This document shows positions 9,001-43,184 of a DNA stretch of 54,353 nucleotides, piece by piece (the stretch's first letter is position 1; each line of letters begins with the position of its first letter). The notes under the pieces were generated by a model. The model was given only the letters and a program-made list of their open reading frames with translations. It searched no databases and was not told where the DNA came from. The translations under genes and the position numbers were made by a program. The DNA is from a virus, in the IMG/VR virus record IMGVR_UViG_3300028706_000007, positions 1 to 54,353 of that record. One strand, given 5' to 3'.

Positions 9001-9388
9001 AGATGTTTTCGGTCGTACTAATTGAAGTGACCTTTATGTATCCTGATGATGCTTGATTTCGTTTTGGCTGATAACCTACCAGATTAGCTAATTTAACCAC
9101 ACTATCTCTGCGTTCTGCTGTATCTAGAAAGTTTTCTCTCGTGTTTAAGTCTTGTCTAAAACTAATACCTTGACCCATAAATGCCATTAAATCTATCAAT
9201 GCAATGAATTCTGAACTTTCAACAAAATCGTTAAAACTCTCTGGATGATGTTGTTTTAGATAATCTATGAAACTTTTTCTTAGTGTTTCAAAATTATAAC
9301 TTTGGAAGTCAGCTTGGTTGTATGTTTTGTATATACTTTTCCAATCTTCTGTGCCAAATATTGTACTGTGTTTTGATGTAGTCGCCAT
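6050..9388 (-). CDS. 6: Baseplate wedge protein gp6-like
   Basis: 1112 residues. The N-terminal 120 residues (FGTEDWKSIYKTYNQADFQS, then SFIDYLKQHHPESFNDFVES, then a GQGISFRQDLNTRENFLDTA stretch) are the hallmark of the T4 gp6 / baseplate J family, which forms the iris ring of the wedge and links neighbouring wedges around the hub. T4 gp6 is about 660 residues, so this one is much longer; the middle part (about 450-900) is a beta-rich expansion. The C-terminus carries the family-like ending with SAMNEYFSISNWDFGETFYF and a VIGSVVITP segment. The next gene begins one base after its stop. Upstream lie a palindrome and a TAATAAATA late-promoter-like box, so it may have its own late transcript as well as operon read-through. 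Confidence 0.92.
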   Translation of the reverse strand: MATTSKHSTIFGTEDWKSIYKTYNQADFQSYNFETLRKSFIDYLKQHHPESFNDFVESSEFIALIDLMAFMGQGISFRQDLNTRENFLDTAERRDSVVKLANLVGYQPKRNQASSGYIKVTSISTTENIYDYNNSSLSNVTVRWNDRTNIDWQEQFNTIINAILVDSQKAGVPGRTADILNVSTSEYSIKIPDGVLPVIPFSASVDGISMNFEAVNATSAGEPYIYEPAPKANNEFNLLYRNDTLGFASKNTGYFFYFKQGTLSNKDFVLSDRISNRQVEVDVDGINGDDVWVYELNALGNIAYEWAGVENIYATNNSQDGVGHRRLYSISNRANDQVTLNFGDGVFGNIPVGTYRAMVRNSNGLEYIINKEDISSIQLTVPYVSRTNRLETATFTVSLTENINNARAKESLADIKRRAPAKFYTQNRMVNGEDYNNFPYATFNSVMKSKAINRTNIGASRYLDLVDPTGKYSSINTFNSDGMLYKDTDEEAFTFAFVDTNDIESVIRNQVEPKIVQRNAVHRYYENNLPYSLTSVDVKWHFSTTSTNQTTGYFENSSSNALQIGEYTTDNLKYFVKGCVIKFEPQTGYYFDKDNRLQNGTPTLDTDKLEIWSGISNVVLDGTNFGSGTDADGIGAVTLTDYIPTDAVPTQVYAVYNTDLSIEFEQVILGQIELYRNFGIQYDNTTAEWNLVSEANLTSDNWITKFETVNNIYTVTTKVLNYYFSSVKETRFFYGDNRKIYDPRTGKVVNDYISILKTNSQPATNSRLTNDVKMDIVGQPVEVDGYAEDYKVLVSFSDFDDDNVADNPSFFDTVVTNDVVDLTQQKVFFQTVTDADNLTRAIPLASDAIVNTSVYAVKADIDVDLTAFSGGEVVYAYTDAKFYQVDSSATSTSEITGYPGYLAKTGRQDLQFQYRHNSPETRRINPGISNIIDMFLVTSAYYTDYTNYINDTTNTITEPVKPSIDELTVAYKSLEDYKMISDNIVMNSVDFKPLFGDKAESGLQATIKVVKLQGSMASNNEIKSRVISAMNEYFSISNWDFGETFYFSELAAYLHDKVGDVIGSVVITPNASNGSFGDLYEIKSAPNEIFVSAATVNDIMVIDALTSTQLNS

Positions 9389-9410
9389 ATTATTGTTATT
9401 TATTACAAAA

Positions 9411-19976: not shown

Positions 19977-20005
19977 TTGACTATAAAGCAAAATAAATGT
20001 ATAAT
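19977..20005 (+). promoter_or_regulatory. Sigma-70-type promoter for gp55
   Basis: TTGACT (19977-19982) and a perfect TATAAT (20000-20005) are separated by exactly 17 bases. Transcription would start near 20012, between this -10 box and the AAGGAGAGG ribosome binding site at 20021. A host-type promoter for the late sigma factor fits its need to be made before late transcription. Confidence 0.7.
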
Positions 20006-20032
20006 ATGTACGATATTCACAAGGAGAGGACA

Positions 20033-20932
20033 TTGCCACGTAAAAGAAATTATTTAAACAACAAAGATATACTAACACAAATTCATTTAAGTAAAAATTC
20101 ATATTGTACATTTATTAACCCAGCAGAGGATAATATGTATGATTTAATTTTGGAAGACGCAAACAAAATTAATATTAGAACCCTAAAACAAGCAAGGGAA
20201 GATCGTGCTAAACGATTGTCAAAGGAATCAGGGGAAATAATAGACCCAAAAACTATAACAAATCAAGATATCATTATCAGAATAATGACAACCGAACATA
20301 TTCCGCTTGTTCCAAAAAGAAAACAAAAATCACAACCAAAATCACAAAAAGAAAGTATTAATGATGTATTATCGTTGGTAGACCCAGACTTATCAGATGA
20401 CATCATTGAATGCGATGACAATGATTGCCCAGATGATGTGGAAATGGCACCAATGAAATGTGGATTTCCAGCATTTTTTCATTATAGAATAGATGAGAAT
20501 AAAGAACCTTACATAGTAGGAAAAAGCCATTGGAAAGGTAGTTTAAAGAACGGTGAATTTAATATGCAGCACGGCAGAGTAACAGATGAGTTAGCTAAAA
20601 TGTATATGAAACTATGCGAAAGATATGCTACAAGAAGCAATTGGCGTGGATACACATACAATGATGAAATGCGAGGACAAGCATTAGTGCAATTATCGCA
20701 GATCGGATTGCAATTCAACGAATTTAAAAGTCAGAACCCATTTGCTTACTATACTGCTGTTATTACTAATTCTTTTACTAGAATCCTAAATAATGAAAAG
20801 AAAATGCAAAATATCAGAGATGACATTTTAGAAGAAAATGGTTTAGATCCGAGCTGGACGAGGCAAATGGCAAATGATGCAGAAATTGAAGAATCAAGAA
20901 AAAATAGAGTTAAACAACTTAATATCCCGTAA
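20033..20932 (+). CDS. 55: Late-transcription sigma factor gp55-like
   Basis: 299 residues from TTG 20033. That start is preferred over ATG 19997 because AAGGAGAGG lies just before it, the ATG lies upstream of the expected transcript start, and the protein then begins PRKRNYLNNKDILTQI, which resembles starts of other gp55 proteins. The conserved sigma-2-like core is SNWRGYTYNDEMRGQALVQ near 200-220 and NPFAYYTAVITNSFTRILNN near 235-255. T4 gp55 is 185 residues; the extra length is an acidic, Lys/Gln-rich insert near 85-130 with a DDNDCPDDVE stretch. Gp55 directs RNA polymerase to TATAAATA late promoters, which are frequent in this window. Its last 59 bases overlap the next gene. Confidence 0.9.
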   Translation: MPRKRNYLNNKDILTQIHLSKNSYCTFINPAEDNMYDLILEDANKINIRTLKQAREDRAKRLSKESGEIIDPKTITNQDIIIRIMTTEHIPLVPKRKQKSQPKSQKESINDVLSLVDPDLSDDIIECDDNDCPDDVEMAPMKCGFPAFFHYRIDENKEPYIVGKSHWKGSLKNGEFNMQHGRVTDELAKMYMKLCERYATRSNWRGYTYNDEMRGQALVQLSQIGLQFNEFKSQNPFAYYTAVITNSFTRILNNEKKMQNIRDDILEENGLDPSWTRQMANDAEIEESRKNRVKQLNIP

Positions 20933-22610
20933 ATACTTAACAGTAAAACATATCAAAGAAAGTTGCTTTGGGGATATAACTTTTCCCAAAGCAATTAGCA
21001 ATGCTAGGCAAATATTATGGCATATTAGCAATAGCATTGATTCAGTGCCATTATGTCCTGTTTGTAGTTCTGAACTTGGATGGCATCCTGACAAAAGAAG
21101 ATACCGTGATTTTTGCAGTCAGAAATGCACTGGTATAGGAACTAAAGAAAAAGCAGTACAAACATCCAAAGACAATAATGGTGGTGTACACCACACACAA
21201 ACACAAGAATATAGAGATAAAGTAAAAGAAACCTCATTAAAAAGGTTTAATACAGAACATTATAGCAAAACTAGTGAATATCACCAACGAGTGATAAGTT
21301 CAAATTTAAAAACATTTGGGGCAGAATACCCTGCACAATCATCGACTGTATTAGACAAAATGAAATCAACCTCAGTGGAACGATTTGGTGTTGATAATTA
21401 CGCAAAAACCGATGAATGTCGCAATAAAACAGTTGCTACTAATTTAGAACGATATGGATTCGCAAATCCAACGCAGAATGCAGATATCCAATCAAAAACC
21501 AGATCAACCAATTTTGATCGCTATGGGGCAAATTACCCAACACAAAATGAAGCCATAATGACAAAAATAGTGGACACTCGCAGAAAAAACTACTACAGCG
21601 AAGACACATTAAGAAAACTAAATGATATTGATTGGTTATCAAATGAACAAAAAACGAGAACTATACAATCAATAGCAGGGGGGTTGGACATCAGCCCTTC
21701 AAATTTAGGAAAATTCTATATGAACTACCGAATTCCTATCACCAACGTTAATCCTCATACATCAGATGCTGAAAAAGAAGTGGTTGCTTTTATTCAAACA
21801 TTGGGTATTACAAACATCATACAGAATGATAAAACCACAATAAGTCCAAAAGAGCTAGACATATTAATACCAGATCACAACTTAGCAATTGAATTCAATG
21901 GCACTTACTGGCATACACAAGGAAAAGGAAAAGATAAACAATACCACCTATCAAAAACAACGGCTTGTGAGTCTAAAGGCATTCAATTATTACATATATC
22001 TGATTTTGAATGGAGTAATCCAGTATCCCAATCAATTTGGAAAAGTATGATTTCGGTTCGTTTACAAAGAGCTAATAGAATATATGCTAGGAAATGCAAA
22101 TTAAAAGAAGTATCAACCAAGGATGCAACTCAGTTCATGAAGAACAATCACTTAGAAGGATTTGTGGGTGGTGGGATTAAATTGGGATTATATCATCGTG
22201 ATATATTAGTCCAATGTATCATCGTTGGCAAGTCTAGGTTTAACAAACGATATCAGAATGAGTTAATTCGTTCTGCAACATTGGTAAATACCGTAGTCAT
22301 CGGAGGATTAAGTAGATTAATCAAAAACATAAAAGGGTCATTAATTTCGTATGCCAATCGTAAGTATGCGAACGGCAAGGGTTATAATGCAATCGGGATG
22401 GTCCAACAGCAGAGCAGTCCCCCAAATTATGTAGTCACTACCAAAAATGGATTAATCGTAGGGTCAAGATATAAGTTCCAAAAACACAAACTAGATAATT
22501 TATTGGATAAATTTGACCCCAATATGTCAGGGTGGTCTAACATTCAAGCGAATGGATATGATCGCATATGGGATTGTGGGAATTTAGTATATACATTGAA
22601 TGCAAAATAG
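20874..22610 (+). CDS. Vsr-type homing endonuclease overlapping gp55
   Basis: Up to 578 residues. A zinc-finger-like set C61/C64 and C81/C85 comes first. Five degenerate repeats of about 30 residues follow (T-N-L-E-R-Y-G-x-x-N-P-T-Q-N type, residues about 110-240), then a short helical DNA-reading part. The nuclease core near 325-380 has ELDILIPDHNLAIEFNGTYW, then H, and LLHISDFEW, matching the Vsr-like (EDxHD) homing endonuclease fold. The C-terminal domain (about 400-578; YARKCKLKEV, FMKNNHLEGFVGG, GYDRIWDCGNLVY) is shared with the second such gene in this window. The frame starts 59 bases inside gp55; the true start is uncertain because no good ribosome site is visible. Such genes spread by cutting phage lacking them. 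Confidence 0.85.
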   Translation: MMQKLKNQEKIELNNLISRKYLTVKHIKESCFGDITFPKAISNARQILWHISNSIDSVPLCPVCSSELGWHPDKRRYRDFCSQKCTGIGTKEKAVQTSKDNNGGVHHTQTQEYRDKVKETSLKRFNTEHYSKTSEYHQRVISSNLKTFGAEYPAQSSTVLDKMKSTSVERFGVDNYAKTDECRNKTVATNLERYGFANPTQNADIQSKTRSTNFDRYGANYPTQNEAIMTKIVDTRRKNYYSEDTLRKLNDIDWLSNEQKTRTIQSIAGGLDISPSNLGKFYMNYRIPITNVNPHTSDAEKEVVAFIQTLGITNIIQNDKTTISPKELDILIPDHNLAIEFNGTYWHTQGKGKDKQYHLSKTTACESKGIQLLHISDFEWSNPVSQSIWKSMISVRLQRANRIYARKCKLKEVSTKDATQFMKNNHLEGFVGGGIKLGLYHRDILVQCIIVGKSRFNKRYQNELIRSATLVNTVVIGGLSRLIKNIKGSLISYANRKYANGKGYNAIGMVQQQSSPPNYVVTTKNGLIVGSRYKFQKHKLDNLLDKFDPNMSGWSNIQANGYDRIWDCGNLVYTLNAK

Positions 22611-22624
22611 TATATAATACACCA

Positions 22625-23635
22625 ATGGCAAATTTATTTAAAAAAGCACTAGTCTTCAGTGATATTCACCTTGGACTAAAAAACAATAGCATCACGCATA
22701 ATGAAGATTGTAAAAACTTCATTGATTGGGCAATAGAAATTGCTAAGAAAGAAAAATGCGAAACTGGTTTATTTCTAGGTGATTGGCATCATAATCGTGC
22801 AAGTATCAACCTGCATACATTGAGTTATAGTCTTAATGCACTAGAGAAACTAAGTACCGCGTTTGAAAACTTTTACTTTTTACCAGGAAATCATGATTTA
22901 TATTACAGAGACAAGCGTGATATTCACGGTGCTGAATGGGCAAAACATTTACCTAATATCAAAGTAATAAACGAATGGTTCATTGAAGACAATGTAGCCA
23001 TTATCCCGTGGTTAGTTCAAGATGATTACAAAAAAGTCAAAAAAGTAAAAGCCAAGTATGTATTTGGTCATTTTGAGTTACCACATTTTAAAATGAATGC
23101 TAATATTTCAATGCCTGATACTGGCGAAGTTAACGCCAAGGATTTTACTAAAATAGATCGTGTCTTTTCTGGACATTTCCATATGCGCCAGAAACAAGAA
23201 AATATTGAGTACATTGGCAATTGTTTCCCACATAATTTTGCTGATACTGATGATGTTGATCGTGGATGTATGACATTAGAATGGGACAAAGAACCAAAAT
23301 ATCATAATTGGGAAAATGCACCACTATATAAGGTGACCACATTAAGTGCTATTTTAGAAAATTCAGAAATATTAAAACCCAATATGTATGTTCGTGCAGT
23401 AACTGATGTTGAGATTAGTTATGAAGAATCAATGCTTTTAAAGGAACAATGCATGAAGGACAATAATTTACGGGCACTGACATTAATTTCAGAACAGACA
23501 ATAACAGATGATGAATTAGTTGATGTGAATACACAGATACAATCAGTAGATGAAATAATCAGTACCCAGCTAACAAATATCACATCTGAGTCATATGACT
23601 CCAATTTATTAATTAAAATATACCAAAATTTATGA
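22625..23635 (+). CDS. 47: Recombination endonuclease subunit gp47-like (Mre11/SbcD type)
   Basis: 336 residues, against 339 in T4. Metallophosphatase motifs are in order: D13-x-H15 in FSDIHLG, GDWHHN at 52-57, GNHD at 88-91, then VFGHFE and SGHFHMRQ for the last metal-binding histidines. With gp46 it forms the nuclease that resects DNA ends for recombination-dependent replication and repair. The ATG at 22625 (MANLFKKALVFSDIH) is chosen over an earlier in-frame start that overlaps the upstream gene. There is no strong ribosome site; a TATAAT lies just upstream without a clear -35. Its stop overlaps the gp46 start (ATGA). Confidence 0.95.
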   Translation: MANLFKKALVFSDIHLGLKNNSITHNEDCKNFIDWAIEIAKKEKCETGLFLGDWHHNRASINLHTLSYSLNALEKLSTAFENFYFLPGNHDLYYRDKRDIHGAEWAKHLPNIKVINEWFIEDNVAIIPWLVQDDYKKVKKVKAKYVFGHFELPHFKMNANISMPDTGEVNAKDFTKIDRVFSGHFHMRQKQENIEYIGNCFPHNFADTDDVDRGCMTLEWDKEPKYHNWENAPLYKVTTLSAILENSEILKPNMYVRAVTDVEISYEESMLLKEQCMKDNNLRALTLISEQTITDDELVDVNTQIQSVDEIISTQLTNITSESYDSNLLIKIYQNL

Positions 23636-25764
23636 TTAAATTCAAAAACTTAACAATAAAAAACTTCATGAGTATCGGAAATGCTACTCAGGCAATATCA
23701 TTGGATCGTACCGATTTAACATTAGTACTCGGTGAGAACCTAGATCTAGGTAGCAATGGGTCAAGAAATGGTGTTGGAAAAACATCTCTCATTAATGCAT
23801 TAAGCTATGCATTATACGGTGGTGCATTGACCAATATCAAAAAACCCAACCTAATAAATAAAACAAATGTAAAAAATATGTTGGTTAGTATTGATTTTAC
23901 GAAAGACAATAAAGCCTACAGGATAGAGCGAGGAAGAAAACCGAATGTGCTTCGATTCTTTATTAATGATGAAGAACACATGGATGATGACGCACAAGGT
24001 GATAGCAGAGAGACACAGATGTTAATTACCTCTGTATTAGGGTTAAGCCATGCAATGTTTAAACATATAGTAGCACTCAATACATACACTGTGCCATTCT
24101 TAAATCTTAGCGTGAAAGACCAACGTGAAATTATCGAAGAACTGATGGGGATCACTCTTTTATCAGAGAAAGCACTAATGCTGAGAGATGAAATCAAGGA
24201 ATCAAAAGATATCATCAAAGAAGAAGATATTATCATTGCAACTATCAGTAACACCAATGCAAAGATACAAGAACAAATCACAAGCATAAAGATAAGCGAA
24301 ACTGAATGGGATACATCTCATATTGATACCATTGCTAGTTTATCCAATGATATAAAGGATTTGCAATCAATAGATATTGACGGCGAGATCAATAATCATG
24401 GGCTAGTAGATGAATGGAACATTGAACAAGATGAATTGAAACATATACTTAGTGTTGAATTGGAGGAATATAACCAACTAACTGATCAACTTCAAAAGCA
24501 ATACATCACCGATTTAGCTGAGTACAACAATGTAAAAGATTTACATCAGAAGCAATACAATGATGAGTTGGGGAACTACAACACATTATCTCGTGATGAA
24601 GCAGATGCACATCAGCTAATGGTTACAGCATTACAATCCACCTACACTGATCAGCTACAAGAGTTTGAGTCATATGAAAGTATGTTAACTGTGTACAACG
24701 ATAAACATAATGACCTCGAAGTATTAAATCAACAAAAAAGTGAGGTGTCTAATAACATTACAATTACCCAAGGTAATAAATGTCCATTATGCAAGCAAGA
24801 TGTTGATGATCACAACCACACCGACTTACTGAAAAAGTTATCAGATGAGTTAAGTGTCATAGAGGATAAAATGGATACTCTCTCTGATGCCATATCGGAG
24901 TTAGAAACCACTATCACTAGCACAAATGAAGTTATTAGACCGAATGAACCTATTTTACCTGAATTAACTAGTGAACTCACTAAACCGACACTAACTGCAT
25001 TAGGTGTTGATATTCCAACACTAACAAAACCGAAAATAAGCAAACCTGTAATGGGGATTGGTAAAACTAAACCAATAACATTATATGATACATTAAAGCA
25101 AGCACTAGAACATAAAAATTTACTTGGTAATTTACAGGTCAAGTTAGCAGACGAAGAAAAAGAGCCTAATCCATATACCATTCAAGTCAAGGACATGGAG
25201 ACTAATCTAATACAAACAATTAATTACGATATCATCAATGAAACAGCGATATTACTAGATCATCAGGATTTCTTGTTAAAATTACTTACCAATAAGGATA
25301 GTTTTATTCGTAAATCCATCATTGAACAAAATTTAGGATATCTGAATACTAGGTTATCATTTTATACGGCTAAAATTGGGTTACATCAGGAAGTCAAGTT
25401 CATTAATGATTTATCTGTTGAAATCACAGAAATGGGGCAGGATTTAGATTTTGATAATCTATCACGAGGCGAGCGTAATCGAGTTATATTATCATTAAGT
25501 TGGTCATTTCGTGATGTATGGGAGAGTTTATACACACCAATTAATGCTATTTTCATTGATGAAGTCATAGATTCTGGGATGGATGCAATCGGTGTTGAGA
25601 ACAGCTTATCTATTCTCAAAGGAATGGCACATGAACGACAAAAGAGTTTATGGTTAATTAGTCATAAAGATGAACTAGCTAGCAGAGTAAATAATGTATT
25701 AACTGTTACGAAAGAAGATGGGTTTACTACATTCAACGACGGGGAGCAATATGATGCCATTTAA
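23632..25764 (+). CDS. 46: Recombination endonuclease ATPase subunit gp46-like (Rad50/SbcC type)
   Basis: 710 residues; T4 gp46 is 560. The Walker A is SRNGVGKT (K50, T51), the zinc-hook C384-P-L-C387 lies mid-protein between two long coiled-coil-prone arms, the ABC signature LSRGERN is near residue 610, and Walker B AIFIDEVIDS follows. The arms hold a repeated YNxLxxQ/QKQY pattern near 275-340. The protein is the ATPase partner of gp47, clamping DNA and controlling the nuclease. It overlaps gp47 by four bases and the following radical-SAM gene by about ten bases, which indicates coupled translation. The extra length lies in the coiled coil, which is variable in this family. Confidence 0.95.
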   Translation: MIKFKNLTIKNFMSIGNATQAISLDRTDLTLVLGENLDLGSNGSRNGVGKTSLINALSYALYGGALTNIKKPNLINKTNVKNMLVSIDFTKDNKAYRIERGRKPNVLRFFINDEEHMDDDAQGDSRETQMLITSVLGLSHAMFKHIVALNTYTVPFLNLSVKDQREIIEELMGITLLSEKALMLRDEIKESKDIIKEEDIIIATISNTNAKIQEQITSIKISETEWDTSHIDTIASLSNDIKDLQSIDIDGEINNHGLVDEWNIEQDELKHILSVELEEYNQLTDQLQKQYITDLAEYNNVKDLHQKQYNDELGNYNTLSRDEADAHQLMVTALQSTYTDQLQEFESYESMLTVYNDKHNDLEVLNQQKSEVSNNITITQGNKCPLCKQDVDDHNHTDLLKKLSDELSVIEDKMDTLSDAISELETTITSTNEVIRPNEPILPELTSELTKPTLTALGVDIPTLTKPKISKPVMGIGKTKPITLYDTLKQALEHKNLLGNLQVKLADEEKEPNPYTIQVKDMETNLIQTINYDIINETAILLDHQDFLLKLLTNKDSFIRKSIIEQNLGYLNTRLSFYTAKIGLHQEVKFINDLSVEITEMGQDLDFDNLSRGERNRVILSLSWSFRDVWESLYTPINAIFIDEVIDSGMDAIGVENSLSILKGMAHERQKSLWLISHKDELASRVNNVLTVTKEDGFTTFNDGEQYDAI

Positions 25765-27526
25765 ACTAGCAAATATCACCGAATACCAATTAGAAATTAC
25801 ATCAGGGTGCAATGCTAGTTGTCCACAGTGCCCTAGAAATATTAACGGGGGTAATGTGAACCCATATTTAGATGTATCACACTTATCACAATACGCAATT
25901 GAAACTGCATTTACTAAAGAAATATGTGAATCTACCAAACGAATATTTTTTTGCGGTAGTTATGGCGATCCCATTGTTCATCCCGACTTCTTAGCTATTT
26001 TAGCAGCCTTTAGAAGAAAAAACCCAACACTATGGTTGTTTATACACACCAATGGCAGTGTCCACAACGCATCATATTGGAAAAAAATGGCAGGTATAAT
26101 AGGTGATTATGGTCACATTGACTTTAATATTGATGGATTAGCTGATACTAACCATATATACCGTAGAAATACCGATTTTAATACAATCATAGACAATGCC
26201 CAAACATTTATTAATAATGGGGGTAAAGCAAATTGGAACTTTATAGTGTATAAACACAACGAACACCAAGTCGATGAAGCACGGTTGTTATCTTCCATAA
26301 TAGGTTTCAGCGAATTCAAAACAAGGTCTACTGGGCGGTTTTTAAACCATTGCACAATGGAAGAAATGGATGGATGGCCTATAGAAAATAGATTAGGTGA
26401 ACAAGTAGGTATACTGGAGGTTCCACTCAATGAAGAATACCACAATAAAAGTTTAGCGGCGTTGCCTAAACTCAAACAAGAAACCAATATATCAGAATAT
26501 TTCAACAATACACGCATCCAGTGTGATGCACTAAACGAACACAACGCAAATAATGATTACAACAAAAAAGATGAAGGCAAAGTATTAATAAATGCTGATG
26601 GGTGGGTAATGCCTTGTAATTTTTTCAATCATAATTTACATGATGCTAGATTCCACGACCGGTATATACTTCCAGGTAGCAATGATTTAAGTTTTTTGCC
26701 AAACGGAAAGAACCAAATACAAGATCTCTTTAGCAGACACAATGCAAAATCAGAGTTGAATATTAACCATACTTCATTGCATAACATATTTCAAAATAGC
26801 TTCTGGGATGAAATTACCGATGGGTTTGATAAAAATATCAATGATGGTCGCATATTCGAATGTGCCATGACATGTGGTGAAGAATTGCACAAAGTATGGG
26901 ATCAGGTTCCTCCTTCGACACCAGCATTCTTGATAACCGGTGGCAATAGAGGATTAGGATTAGAAATAAAAAATAATTTCAATGGAACATCAATTGCTAG
27001 GTCAGAAGACAACGATATCATGGCAGATATAACTAGTAATAGTGATTTAGAACGCATAGCATTGGAAAGTTTAAAGTATGATGTTTTTGTGAATTGTGCG
27101 TTTGATGGGCCACCTGGTGAAGAATGGACTAATTTCGCCCAAGTTAACCTACTAATAAAAATATATGACATTTGGAAAGAAAATAATAAAGAAGGTCACA
27201 TAATAAACATTGGTAGCATCGGTGAAAAGAATATAGTCGCACCAGAACCAACATTCGAACGGTATAGAATAGCAAAATCAGCATTAGCACATGCTAGTAA
27301 ACAGTGCACCAACGCATTTAAGAACGATTTTGTTAAATTCAGAACAAGTTTATTATCCATTGATAGGCTTGATACACCCATTACTAGGTCAAATAAATCA
27401 TGGACGGGTAATGGATTAGATTGCGGTGATGTAATAAAATCCATAGAATATATTTTAAGCATAAACAGTAATACATGCATTGAAGAAATAGTTTCATGGG
27501 TAAATTACAAATACAAAGGCACGTAA
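25754..27526 (+). CDS. Radical-SAM / short-chain dehydrogenase fusion
   Basis: 590 residues from ATG 25754; an adjacent ATG at 25751 is also possible. GGGGAG lies seven bases upstream, inside the end of gp46. Residues 1 to about 380 form a radical-SAM enzyme: C19-x3-C23-x2-C26 within SGCNASCPQCPR for the iron-sulfur cluster, and later cysteines in GWVMPCNFF and ECAMTCG that resemble a SPASM-type auxiliary cluster site. Residues about 388-590 form a short-chain dehydrogenase: LITGGNRGLGLEI for the nucleotide, a central NCAF in place of NNAG, INIGSIGEKN with the catalytic Ser, and YRIAKSALAHASKQ with the Y-x3-K pair. Both halves keep their key residues. The substrate is unknown; peptide, sugar or nucleotide modification are all possible. 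It is the last gene before a non-coding region. Confidence 0.82.
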   Translation: MPFKLANITEYQLEITSGCNASCPQCPRNINGGNVNPYLDVSHLSQYAIETAFTKEICESTKRIFFCGSYGDPIVHPDFLAILAAFRRKNPTLWLFIHTNGSVHNASYWKKMAGIIGDYGHIDFNIDGLADTNHIYRRNTDFNTIIDNAQTFINNGGKANWNFIVYKHNEHQVDEARLLSSIIGFSEFKTRSTGRFLNHCTMEEMDGWPIENRLGEQVGILEVPLNEEYHNKSLAALPKLKQETNISEYFNNTRIQCDALNEHNANNDYNKKDEGKVLINADGWVMPCNFFNHNLHDARFHDRYILPGSNDLSFLPNGKNQIQDLFSRHNAKSELNINHTSLHNIFQNSFWDEITDGFDKNINDGRIFECAMTCGEELHKVWDQVPPSTPAFLITGGNRGLGLEIKNNFNGTSIARSEDNDIMADITSNSDLERIALESLKYDVFVNCAFDGPPGEEWTNFAQVNLLIKIYDIWKENNKEGHIINIGSIGEKNIVAPEPTFERYRIAKSALAHASKQCTNAFKNDFVKFRTSLLSIDRLDTPITRSNKSWTGNGLDCGDVIKSIEYILSINSNTCIEEIVSWVNYKYKGT

Positions 27527-27579
27527 CAAAGGCATATAACAAAGGCATATAACAAAGGCATATAACAAAGGCATATAAC
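27515..27579 (+). repeat. Five 13-bp tandem repeats
   Basis: Five head-to-tail units of AAAGGCATATAAC; the first unit reads AAAGGCACGTAAC and contains the stop codon of the radical-SAM/SDR gene. The other four are identical. They lie directly before the structured RNA candidate. Iteron-like origin repeats, protein-binding sites or simple slippage product are all possible. Confidence 0.9.
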
Positions 27580-27599
27580 ACATTTTTTGGTCTATAATC

Positions 27600-28292
27600 T
27601 ATTGATAGTCTAGCTTGGGACGGTTAACACAAGCGGTAACACTCCCCACAAGTGGAGGACACCTAATCCCTGGGCAATAGCAGGGATCATAGCTACTACC
27701 CCTCTGGGGATGAAGATGCAATGCGCCTCGTATTAATGCGTTTAGCTATGAGATAAGGATACGATTATAGGCTAAAAGATGTTGCTCTGAAAGAAAAAAG
27801 ATTCAACAACAAATTCAAATAATGTGTTTCGATAGTGAATATTATTTGAATTCCCGTCATAAATGTAATTATTGGTAGTAAGGAGAATGAACCCAATTGT
27901 ATTACGCAAAGTTCTAGGGTAGAAGGTATTCGGATGACCGCCTTCGTGTTTATGTGTATAGACCATAAACAATCCCTTATCACATCTGTCCGACCGCGGC
28001 TCACACGAAGAGTAGGCTATTGGATTTAACTTTGTTTGTCCATCGGATAGGCAAAGTTTGTCCAAAAGGTCTACACGAATATATAAGGTCAACCAATAAC
28101 ATAAAATACAATTGGCATAGTAATATTACCTTAATTAATCTATATACCGTATCATTGGAATTAAAAATGGGAATGAGTGCCAACGAGTTCCCAGATGCCG
28201 TAAGGCATCTCTACACTATTAATATAATTTAACACTTTGGTATATGTAAGGATAGGTTTAATATATAGCGACCTATTAGAAATAAAATAGGT
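27600..28292 (+). ncRNA. Large structured non-coding RNA candidate
   Basis: No convincing gene lies between 27530 and 28307, yet the sequence is full of perfect complementary arms. Local hairpins include 27666-27672 with 27681-27687, 27812-27823 with 27841-27852 (12 bp), 27948-27954 with 27964-27970, 28028-28034 with 28052-28058 plus outer 28020-28024 with 28061-28065, and 28193-28199 with 28204-28210 closed by a GTAA tetraloop. Longer-range arms are 27688-27695 with 27743-27750, 27893-27900 with 28108-28115, 27927-27932 with 28076-28081 and 27942-27949 with 28003-28010. The loop TAGACC 27959-27964 can pair with GGTCTA 28068-28073 as a pseudoknot. A TATAAT at 27593-27598 may be the -10 box, and a hairpin at 28271-28292 may end it. 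Size and complexity recall the giant phage RNAs GOLLD and ROOL; I cannot confirm membership. Ends are estimates. Confidence 0.68.
28271..28292. terminator. Hairpin between convergent units
   Basis: ACCTATT (28271-28277) pairs with AATAGGT (28286-28292) around an eight-base loop. It lies between the RNA candidate (plus) and the gp26 partner frame (minus), where transcription converges. On the plus strand it is followed by a weak T-rich stretch, so it may end transcripts from either side. Confidence 0.4.
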
Positions 28293-42477: not shown

Positions 42478-42500
42478 AATGTTCTACTAATTAGAACATT
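42478..42500 (+). terminator. Hairpin between two head-region genes
   Basis: AATGTTCTA (42478-42486) pairs perfectly with TAGAACATT (42492-42500) around the loop CTAAT. No long T-run follows, so terminator strength is uncertain; it may protect mRNA ends. Confidence 0.45.
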
Positions 42501-42551
42501 TATGCAGAAACCCCTCTGCGTAGTCATAGAACGATTTTCAAGGAGAAAAAA

Positions 42552-43184
42552 ATGGGACGACCAATAAATAAAAAGCACTTTGGTAACACAAACGAAGGCG
42601 GTTTAGGCGGCGAAGGCTTAGACGGAGTATTAGTAACAGCAGCTGGCACTGGTTATTCAACCGGTGAAGCAGTAACAATTTCAGCACCACAATTACCAGG
42701 TGGTATACAAGCAACAGCAACAATTGTATCAGATGGCACTGTTGTATCTGTAACCGTAACAGAAGCAGGTACTGGTTACACATCAGTACCAACAATTACA
42801 TTTGCAACAGGCAATGCAGATGCAACAGGCACAGCGGTATTAACATCGACTAAGGTGAATGCTATTTCATTGACTGCATTCGTAACTGGTGGCAGTGATC
42901 AAATTGGTGATATAGTTGCACAAAAAGGTTCAAGGCGTTTTAGAGTAACAACTGCAACTGGTACTGAAGTCTGTAAATTAGTAACAAGTACACCGAATGC
43001 ACCTGGTGAAATGCGTATTACAGCAACAGATTCAGTAAGTGGAACATATTTTATTAGTAAAATTTCAGCTGGAACATGTACTGTTGTGCGTGGCACAGGC
43101 ACAGAATTTGCGGATGGTGTTAAAGTTGCTTGGACGAAAGGTTCAGCGGTATTGGACTATTCAGTATCAATGACCAATGCATAA
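42552..43184 (+). CDS. Virion-type protein with GTGY repeats and shared QKG domain
   Basis: 210 residues with AAGGAG before the ATG. It starts MGRPINKKHFGNTNEGGLGG. Residues 26-95 hold two beta repeats with TAAGTGYSTGE and EAGTGYTSVPTITF, a common short repeat in phage surface proteins. Residues 110-210 carry IGDIVAQKGSRRFRVTTATG and CKLV, like the domain in the preceding gene. Gly/Thr/Ala/Val-rich and beta-strand-rich, with no enzyme motif. Position between capsid and fibre genes and a strong terminator after it suggest a virion protein made in large amount, such as a head decoration protein. Confidence 0.65.
   Translation: MGRPINKKHFGNTNEGGLGGEGLDGVLVTAAGTGYSTGEAVTISAPQLPGGIQATATIVSDGTVVSVTVTEAGTGYTSVPTITFATGNADATGTAVLTSTKVNAISLTAFVTGGSDQIGDIVAQKGSRRFRVTTATGTEVCKLVTSTPNAPGEMRITATDSVSGTYFISKISAGTCTVVRGTGTEFADGVKVAWTKGSAVLDYSVSMTNA

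What the first reader, a model, noticed from the sequence alone, without database searches (positions are those of the whole stretch)
25754..27526. Radical-SAM enzyme fused to a short-chain dehydrogenase in a phage
Both halves keep complete key motifs: C-x3-C-x2-C for the iron-sulfur cluster, extra cysteines like a SPASM site, and the dehydrogenase GGxxxGLG, Ser, and Y-x3-K residues. Such a fusion implies a two-step reaction on one substrate (radical chemistry plus NAD(P)-dependent oxidation or reduction). Its start lies inside the end of gp46, so it is co-expressed with replication and recombination genes, which hints at modification of DNA, nucleotides or a host component early in infection.
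Basis: partly seen in the sequence, partly recalled or inferred. Interest (0 to 1): 0.72.

Follow-up and report, generated by a model that had tools for sequence, protein, structure and literature searches.

The report
Radical-SAM enzyme fused to NADPH reductase
A phage gene encodes a radical-chemistry enzyme joined to a reductase; most related phages keep the same two enzymes as adjacent, tightly coupled genes, so they very probably act one after the other on one still unknown molecule, perhaps a sugar of the cell surface.

Summary
ORF 25754-27526 (590 aa) is a radical-SAM/Twitch enzyme (aa 1-383) fused to a classical short-chain dehydrogenase (SDR, aa 384-590). The "SPASM-like" site has four Cys (one auxiliary cluster, Twitch type), not the seven of SPASM.

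It is not an assembly error: fused relatives occur in ten other metagenome datasets. In 50 distinct split relatives the halves are neighbouring genes; all 50 have an ATGA stop/start overlap and 41 a GGAGG-like ribosome site inside the radical-SAM frame. Both halves are under purifying selection.

The pairing also exists in bacteria: in four genomes tested, the gene beside the radical-SAM gene is the genome's only match to the phage SDR profile. One pair lies inside a nucleotide-sugar gene cluster.

Most likely it is a two-step enzyme: radical oxidation, dehydration or epimerisation through a carbonyl, then NADPH reduction. AprD4/AprD3 work this way, but it is not an AprD4 homologue. A carbohydrate substrate is favoured with moderate confidence; DNA or nucleotide modification has no specific support. 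The substrate is unproven. The fusion was not found in INPHARED phages, the top BFVD hits or the papers searched.

The parts
25754..27526 (+). radical-SAM/Twitch - SDR fusion gene, 590 aa
25754..26902 (+). radical-SAM/Twitch half (aa 1-383)
   Evidence: Pfam Radical_SAM 1.2e-10; model pLDDT 91.4, best matches SuiB, SkfB, MoaA, BlsE, DesII, BtrN
25808..25831 (+). codons of C19-x3-C23-x2-C26, the SAM-binding iron-sulfur cluster motif
   Evidence: sequence; invariant
26522..26875 (+). region with the four auxiliary-cluster Cys: C257 (26522), C288 (26615), C370 (26861), C374 (26873)
   Evidence: invariant in phage and bacterial relatives
26903..27523 (+). SDR half (aa 384-590)
26936..26959 (+). 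TGGNRGLG cofactor motif of the SDR (aa 395-402)
27215..27277 (+). SDR catalytic Ser488 (27215), Tyr504 (27263), Lys508 (27275)
25741..25746 (+). GGGGAG, ribosome-binding site for the fusion, inside the end of gp46
   Evidence: sequence
23632..25764 (+). gp46 (SbcC-like), upstream neighbour, overlapping
   Evidence: PHROG phrog_77 1.1e-96
22568..23635 (+). gp47 (SbcD-like), overlapping gp46; its start is more likely at 22625, from the L004 homologue
   Evidence: PHROG phrog_100 1.9e-64
19997..20932 (+). gp55-like late sigma factor, first gene of the same run
   Evidence: PHROG phrog_12791 1e-78

Best explanation
The gene encodes the fused form of a two-component enzyme. The radical-SAM/Twitch half makes a 5'-deoxyadenosyl radical and takes a hydrogen atom from a carbon of its substrate. 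The substrate radical is resolved to a carbonyl, either by passing an electron to a fully Cys-ligated auxiliary cluster (as proposed for BtrN) or by loss of water (as in AprD4). The SDR half then reduces the carbonyl with NADPH, so the net result is inversion or removal of a hydroxyl group. The favoured substrate is a carbohydrate, a nucleotide sugar or surface glycan that the phage alters during infection. Shown by computation: the fusion, the coupled two-gene form, conserved catalytic residues, purifying selection, and the same pairing in bacteria including one nucleotide-sugar cluster. Inferred: the order of the steps, the direction of the SDR, the NADPH preference and the sugar substrate.
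For: All 50 distinct split junctions have an ATGA overlap and 41 a GGAGG-like site in the radical-SAM frame, which implies coupled synthesis of the two proteins. Fused in eight distinct sequences. dN/dS about 0.04-0.17 in both halves. In bacterial genomes G002, G003, G013 and G210 the SDR beside the radical-SAM gene is the only match to a phage-only SDR profile. The L087 pair lies between a UDP-sugar dehydrogenase and a Gfo/Idh oxidoreductase, with a glycosyltransferase, hexapeptide transferase and DegT aminotransferase nearby. In L155 the radical-SAM gene overlaps a nucleotide-sugar dehydrogenase and is followed by a glycosyltransferase. Four auxiliary Cys as in BtrN. Sugar- or cyclitol-acting DesII, BlsE and BtrN are among the structural matches. 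AprD4/AprD3 shows that such a pair can deoxygenate a sugar (PMC5461906). Arg399 and Arg416 of the SDR suggest NADP(H) (general rule for classical SDRs).
Against: No substrate is known. The best structural match is SuiB, a peptide-modifying enzyme. Only one bacterial pair sits in a clear nucleotide-sugar cluster; most bacterial relatives of the radical-SAM half that were examined have no SDR next to them. L155 has no SDR. The window itself has no recognised sugar gene beside the fusion. The helix-4 Asn of the SDR is not conserved.
Confidence: 0.45

Rival explanations
1. Peptide or protein modification: the radical-SAM half alters residues of a ribosomal peptide or of a virion or host protein, and the SDR reduces the product.
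For: SuiB and SkfB, both peptide maturases, are top structural matches (Z 19.9 and 19.0). SPASM/Twitch enzymes often act on peptides (PMC6231123). A 172-aa protein of unknown function often stands upstream in the phage cassette.
Against: No precursor-peptide gene or peptide-recognition domain was recognised beside the pair; the 172-aa gene is absent in the window and in many relatives. Fold similarity does not separate peptide from sugar enzymes: MoaA, BlsE and DesII score within 2 Z units.
Confidence: 0.25
2. DNA or nucleotide modification: the enzyme makes or alters a modified base or a nucleotide.
For: Co-transcription with gp47/gp46 and the sigma factor gene. Large phages often modify their DNA (general knowledge).
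Against: No bacterial or phage neighbour of the pair that was examined is a DNA-modification gene; in bacteria the family lies in glycan-type clusters. The place after gp46 is a variable cassette site, so position says little.
Confidence: 0.12
3. Mycofactocin-like arrangement: the radical-SAM half makes or services a redox cofactor that the SDR needs, so that the SDR is the client and not the second step.
For: Mycofactocin links a radical-SAM protein with dependent SDRs (PMC3023750).
Against: Match to the mycofactocin maturase model is only 18 bits against a cut-off of 265. One SDR per radical-SAM gene, coupled or fused, fits sequential action better than a shared cofactor.
Confidence: 0.06
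4. The fusion in the window is a sequencing or assembly error that joins two ordinary neighbouring genes.
For: Most relatives are split.
Against: Seven further distinct fused sequences from ten other datasets, in three groups of the tree, with different linkers that have lost the GGAGG-ATGA junction.
Confidence: 0.02

Closest known systems
AprD4 / AprD3 of the apramycin pathway
   Same: A radical-SAM enzyme with an NADPH-dependent reductase partner; two steps on one sugar (PMC5461906).
   Different: Not homologous at family level: no hit to NF033070 (AprD4) within the reported E-values. AprD4 and AprD3 are separate proteins; here the radical-SAM half has a four-Cys Twitch region and the two are fused.
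BtrN (butirosin pathway, Twitch radical-SAM dehydrogenase)
   Same: Twitch domain with four Cys that can ligate one auxiliary cluster; same fold (Z 15.6; PMC6231123).
   Different: About 14% identity, and BtrN has no fused SDR.
DesII and BlsE (radical-SAM enzymes of sugar-containing natural products)
   Same: Same overall fold (Z 17.9 and 18.4).
   Different: 12-15% identity, no SDR half.
Radical-SAM genes of pelagimyophages and Campylobacter group II phages
   Same: Radical-SAM genes in variable regions of large myophages, with sugar-related genes nearby (PMC7029224).
   Different: 25-26% identity over the radical-SAM core only; no SDR relative detected.
Mycofactocin system (MftC and dependent SDRs)
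   Same: Functional link between a radical-SAM/SPASM enzyme and SDRs (PMC3023750).
   Different: There the radical-SAM enzyme matures a peptide cofactor and the SDRs are separate clients; model match here is far under cut-off.

Membership tests
Radical SAM superfamily (Pfam PF04055) | C-x3-C-x2-C in a radical-SAM barrel, model score above the curated cut-off | tested here: met
   42.3 bits against 29.5; C19/C23/C26 invariant; fold matches
Radical SAM superfamily (Pfam PF04055) | Iron-sulfur cluster and reductive cleavage of SAM | not testable with these tools
   needs purified protein
SPASM domain (PF13186; seven-Cys motif) | Seven Cys, CX9-15GX4C-gap-CX2CX5CX3C-gap-C, for two auxiliary clusters | tested here: not met
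   only C257, C288, C370, C374 conserved; no Pfam SPASM hit in P0001
Twitch domain (one auxiliary cluster) | Truncated SPASM region that ligates one cluster with about four Cys | tested here: met
   four invariant Cys with G283-x4-C288, definition from PMC6231123; the cluster itself was not shown
Classical SDR superfamily (PF00106) | TGxxxGxG cofactor motif and Ser, Tyr-x3-Lys | tested here: met
   T395-G402, S488, Y504, K508; fold Z about 20
Classical SDR superfamily (PF00106) | Pfam score above cut-off | tested here: not met
   19.0 bits against 26.6 for the half alone; the bacterial partner L087:7346-7996 does pass at 59.9 bits
Classical SDR superfamily (PF00106) | Asn in helix 4 completing the catalytic tetrad | tested here: inconclusive
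   N465 in the window, but R, L or Q in relatives
AprD4 family (NF033070) | Match to the equivalog model (cut-off 500 bits) | tested here: not met
   absent from the NCBIfam hits of P0001 at E up to 0.01
AprD4/AprD3 type reaction | Radical dehydration followed by NADPH reduction of a sugar | not testable with these tools
   analogy only
Mycofactocin maturase MftC (TIGR03962) | Model score above cut-off | tested here: not met
   18 bits against 265

The most novel reading that the evidence does not exclude
A previously undescribed two-component enzyme family, shared by large uncultured myophages and several bacterial groups, in which a Twitch radical-SAM enzyme and an SDR, coupled or fused, carry out radical epimerisation or deoxygenation of surface sugars, which the phage uses to change its host's surface during infection.
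Probability: 0.3. Interest if true: 0.72.

Novelty: new variant of a known kind. Interest (0 to 1): 0.52.

Why it matters
The fused form, together with the universally coupled split form, says that an unassigned radical-SAM group and an unassigned SDR group act as one unit, which narrows the reaction enough to test it. The fusion is a convenient single protein for that test. If the substrate is a surface sugar, it adds radical chemistry to the ways in which phages change their hosts, and gives a handle on the many radical-SAM genes of large phages whose roles are unknown.

Tried and rejected
Single-sequence scans of viral and genome contigs with P0001 found nothing, since they rest on rare exact peptides; the alignment scans found many. 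tblastn in INPHARED phages gave only weak radical-SAM core hits and no SDR hit. PDB by sequence: no useful match for the radical-SAM half, weak SDR hits. Long spans of 2.3-2.5 kb in some loci looked like inserts but are a second radical-SAM gene next door. A -1 frameshift as a source of fusion protein in split relatives was considered, because the SDR frame is -1 in 67 of 70 cases; the ATGA overlap with a ribosome site explains this, so it is not needed. AprD4 homology rejected. A catalytic SDR tetrad rejected in favour of the triad. No paper on a radical-SAM/SDR fusion in phages was found with the terms tried. PADLOC was not searched.

Full report
WHAT IS THERE. The ORF at 25754-27526 encodes 590 aa and overlaps the last codons of gp46. 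Residues 1-383 match Pfam Radical_SAM (1.2e-10, above cut-off) and carry C19-x3-C23-x2-C26. Four more Cys (257, 288, 370, 374) are invariant across phage and bacterial relatives. With G283-x4-C288 they fit the one-cluster Twitch pattern and not the seven-Cys SPASM motif as defined in PMC6231123. Residues 384-590 are an SDR: weak in Pfam (0.0011), but with TGGNRGLG, Ser488 and Tyr504-x3-Lys508 conserved. The AlphaFold model of the whole protein has mean pLDDT 93.3 and pTM 0.79. Its SDR half aligns to SDR structures at Z about 20. The radical-SAM half modelled alone (pLDDT 91.4, pTM 0.90) aligns to SuiB (Z 19.9), SkfB (19.0), MoaA (18.4), BlsE (18.4), DesII (17.9) and BtrN (15.6). The fourth SDR catalytic residue, the helix-4 Asn, is not conserved. 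Arg399 and Arg416 suggest NADP(H) by the usual rule for classical SDRs (general knowledge).

FUSED AND SPLIT FORMS. Because that list is ranked on the whole query it favours loci with both halves, so relatives without the SDR are under-sampled. In ten of the 80 contigs the halves are one ORF (seven distinct sequences, ten datasets); in the rest they are adjacent genes in the same order. Of 50 distinct split junctions, all 50 end the radical-SAM gene with an ATGA overlap, and 41 have GGAGG or GGGGG within about 20 nt upstream, inside the codons of the conserved DQGGS tail. In the fused forms this junction is gone and the linkers differ. On a tree of 63 sequences the fused state needs three changes (bootstrap range 2-3); a single origin is not excluded. 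dN/dS (Nei-Gojobori) is about 0.04-0.17 for both halves in six close pairs, and about 0.10 for the SDR of a more distant fused pair whose radical-SAM half was saturated. In several pairs the SDR is far more diverged than the radical-SAM half (L037/L042: dS 1.11 against 0.15), which suggests exchange of halves between phages.

GENOME CONTEXT. The fusion ends a run of overlapping or closely spaced plus-strand genes: late sigma factor (19997-20932), a homing-endonuclease-like gene (20874-22610), gp47 and gp46. Of 45 distinct loci with gp46 on the contig, 12 have the pair directly after gp46, 11 have a B12-class radical-SAM gene of about 500 aa and a 172-aa protein in between, and the rest have other cassettes. 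Downstream there is usually a SegE-like GIY-YIG gene and then a T4_baseplate-like gene on the other strand. In L004, a near relative by gp46 (84%), the same place holds a 342-aa radical-SAM protein of about 30% identity and no SDR. The place is therefore a variable cassette site. The best gp46 matches among sequenced phages are large myophages, at 35-45% identity.

BACTERIA. The genome scan gave 29 loci. L086 (Bacteriovoracales) has the radical-SAM gene, a 106-aa gene and the SDR, at 38-39% identity. L087 (Deltaproteobacteria) has SDR and radical-SAM next to each other, between a UDP-glucose/GDP-mannose dehydrogenase and a Gfo/Idh oxidoreductase, in a cluster with a family-2 glycosyltransferase, a hexapeptide transferase, methyltransferases and a DegT aminotransferase. 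Among 369 genomes of the phylum of G002, 25 have the radical-SAM family at E up to 1e-60; of the 30 loci returned, three have an adjacent SDR. In G002, G003, G013 and G210 the SDR beside the radical-SAM gene is the only match in the genome to an SDR profile made from phage sequences alone (E 6e-66, 7e-8, 2e-19, 2e-10). The two families are thus specifically associated in bacteria too. Other bacterial loci have the radical-SAM gene without SDR among glycosyltransferases, a nucleotide-sugar dehydrogenase and N-Twitch radical-SAM genes. The B12-class radical-SAM gene of the phage cassette has homologues at E about 1e-125 in the same bacterial clusters (L149, L152).

MECHANISM. The data establish a paired enzyme; they do not establish the substrate. 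A radical-SAM enzyme with an NADPH-dependent reductase partner is known in AprD4/AprD3, where a sugar is deoxygenated in two steps (PMC5461906). The window protein is not of the AprD4 family but can work in a similar way. The four auxiliary Cys resemble BtrN, whose fully ligated cluster is thought to take the second electron in alcohol oxidation (PMC6231123). Oxidation followed by reduction would invert a hydroxyl group; dehydration followed by reduction would remove one. I favour a carbohydrate because of the L087 and L155 contexts, and because radical-SAM cassettes of pelagimyophages lie in a hypervariable region rich in LPS genes, whose glycosyltransferases its authors read as host-surface modification (PMC7029224). 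The fold does not decide between sugar and peptide, so peptide modification is the main rival. DNA modification rests only on the position next to gp46.

LIMITS. The fold tables show only the top 50 rows, so 'not found' refers to those and to INPHARED. No coordinates or inter-domain errors were available to measure the distance between the active sites. The cofactor assignment is a rule, not a measurement. TATAAATA occurs four times in the window against 10.2 expected by chance, so only its placement upstream of genes is suggestive.

Noticed in passing
window 27590-27800; L004 about 9190-9400: Intergenic stretch after the fusion folds unusually well as RNA (-61.8 kcal/mol, z -2.6). L004 has a similar element at the same place with changed stems around a shared GCAATAGCAG...CTACCC...GGATG. 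No Rfam match there; a pattern scan found only these two types, a near-identical copy (L160) and one probably unrelated hit.
   Followed up: partly
window 27522-27580: About four tandem copies of a 13-16 bp unit (aacaaaggcatat) directly after the stop codon of the fusion, seen by eye.
   Followed up: no
window 42480-42554: Rfam freshwater-2 RNA (RF02980, 52.3 bits) just upstream of the gene at 42552; fits a freshwater origin.
   Followed up: no
window 20874-22610: Homing-endonuclease-like gene (DUF7487; phrog_3339 2.2e-124) between the sigma factor gene and gp47.
   Followed up: no
window 10349, 29378, 41816, 41824: The only four TATAAATA motifs of the window (T4 late-promoter type), each just upstream of a gene; none before the sigma factor-gp47-gp46-fusion run.
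   Followed up: no
L021 2997-4499, L016 4472-4990 and relatives: A B12-class radical-SAM gene (about 500 aa) and an unknown 172-aa protein travel together between gp46 and the pair in many phages; the radical-SAM gene has close bacterial homologues, the 172-aa protein none found.
   Followed up: partly
L052 6684-7310 and L069 6691-7005: In some phages a small radical-SAM core and a 104-aa Cys-rich, Twitch-like protein stand as two genes after the pair; both match parts of single bacterial radical-SAM proteins, so this looks like another split enzyme.
   Followed up: partly
L037/L042, L045/L047, L056/L066: Synonymous divergence of the SDR is several times that of the radical-SAM half in the same pair of phages, as if halves were swapped by recombination.
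   Followed up: partly
L149 and L152, whole stretches: Bdellovibrionota-phylum genomes carry clusters with many radical-SAM genes (this family, N-Twitch, B12-class), a weakly QueC-like PP-loop gene and in L149 an SDR-like partner whose glycine motif is changed but Tyr-x3-Lys kept.
   Followed up: partly
L072 1624-3227: A second pair in the same phage: a short SDR-like gene (151 aa) directly before another radical-SAM-like gene (383 aa), between gp47 and gp46.
   Followed up: no
L157 3511-5059: Phage G008, which carries the pair, also encodes a nucleotide-sugar epimerase (phrog_540, 4.5e-63) and a weak aminotransferase match.
   Followed up: no
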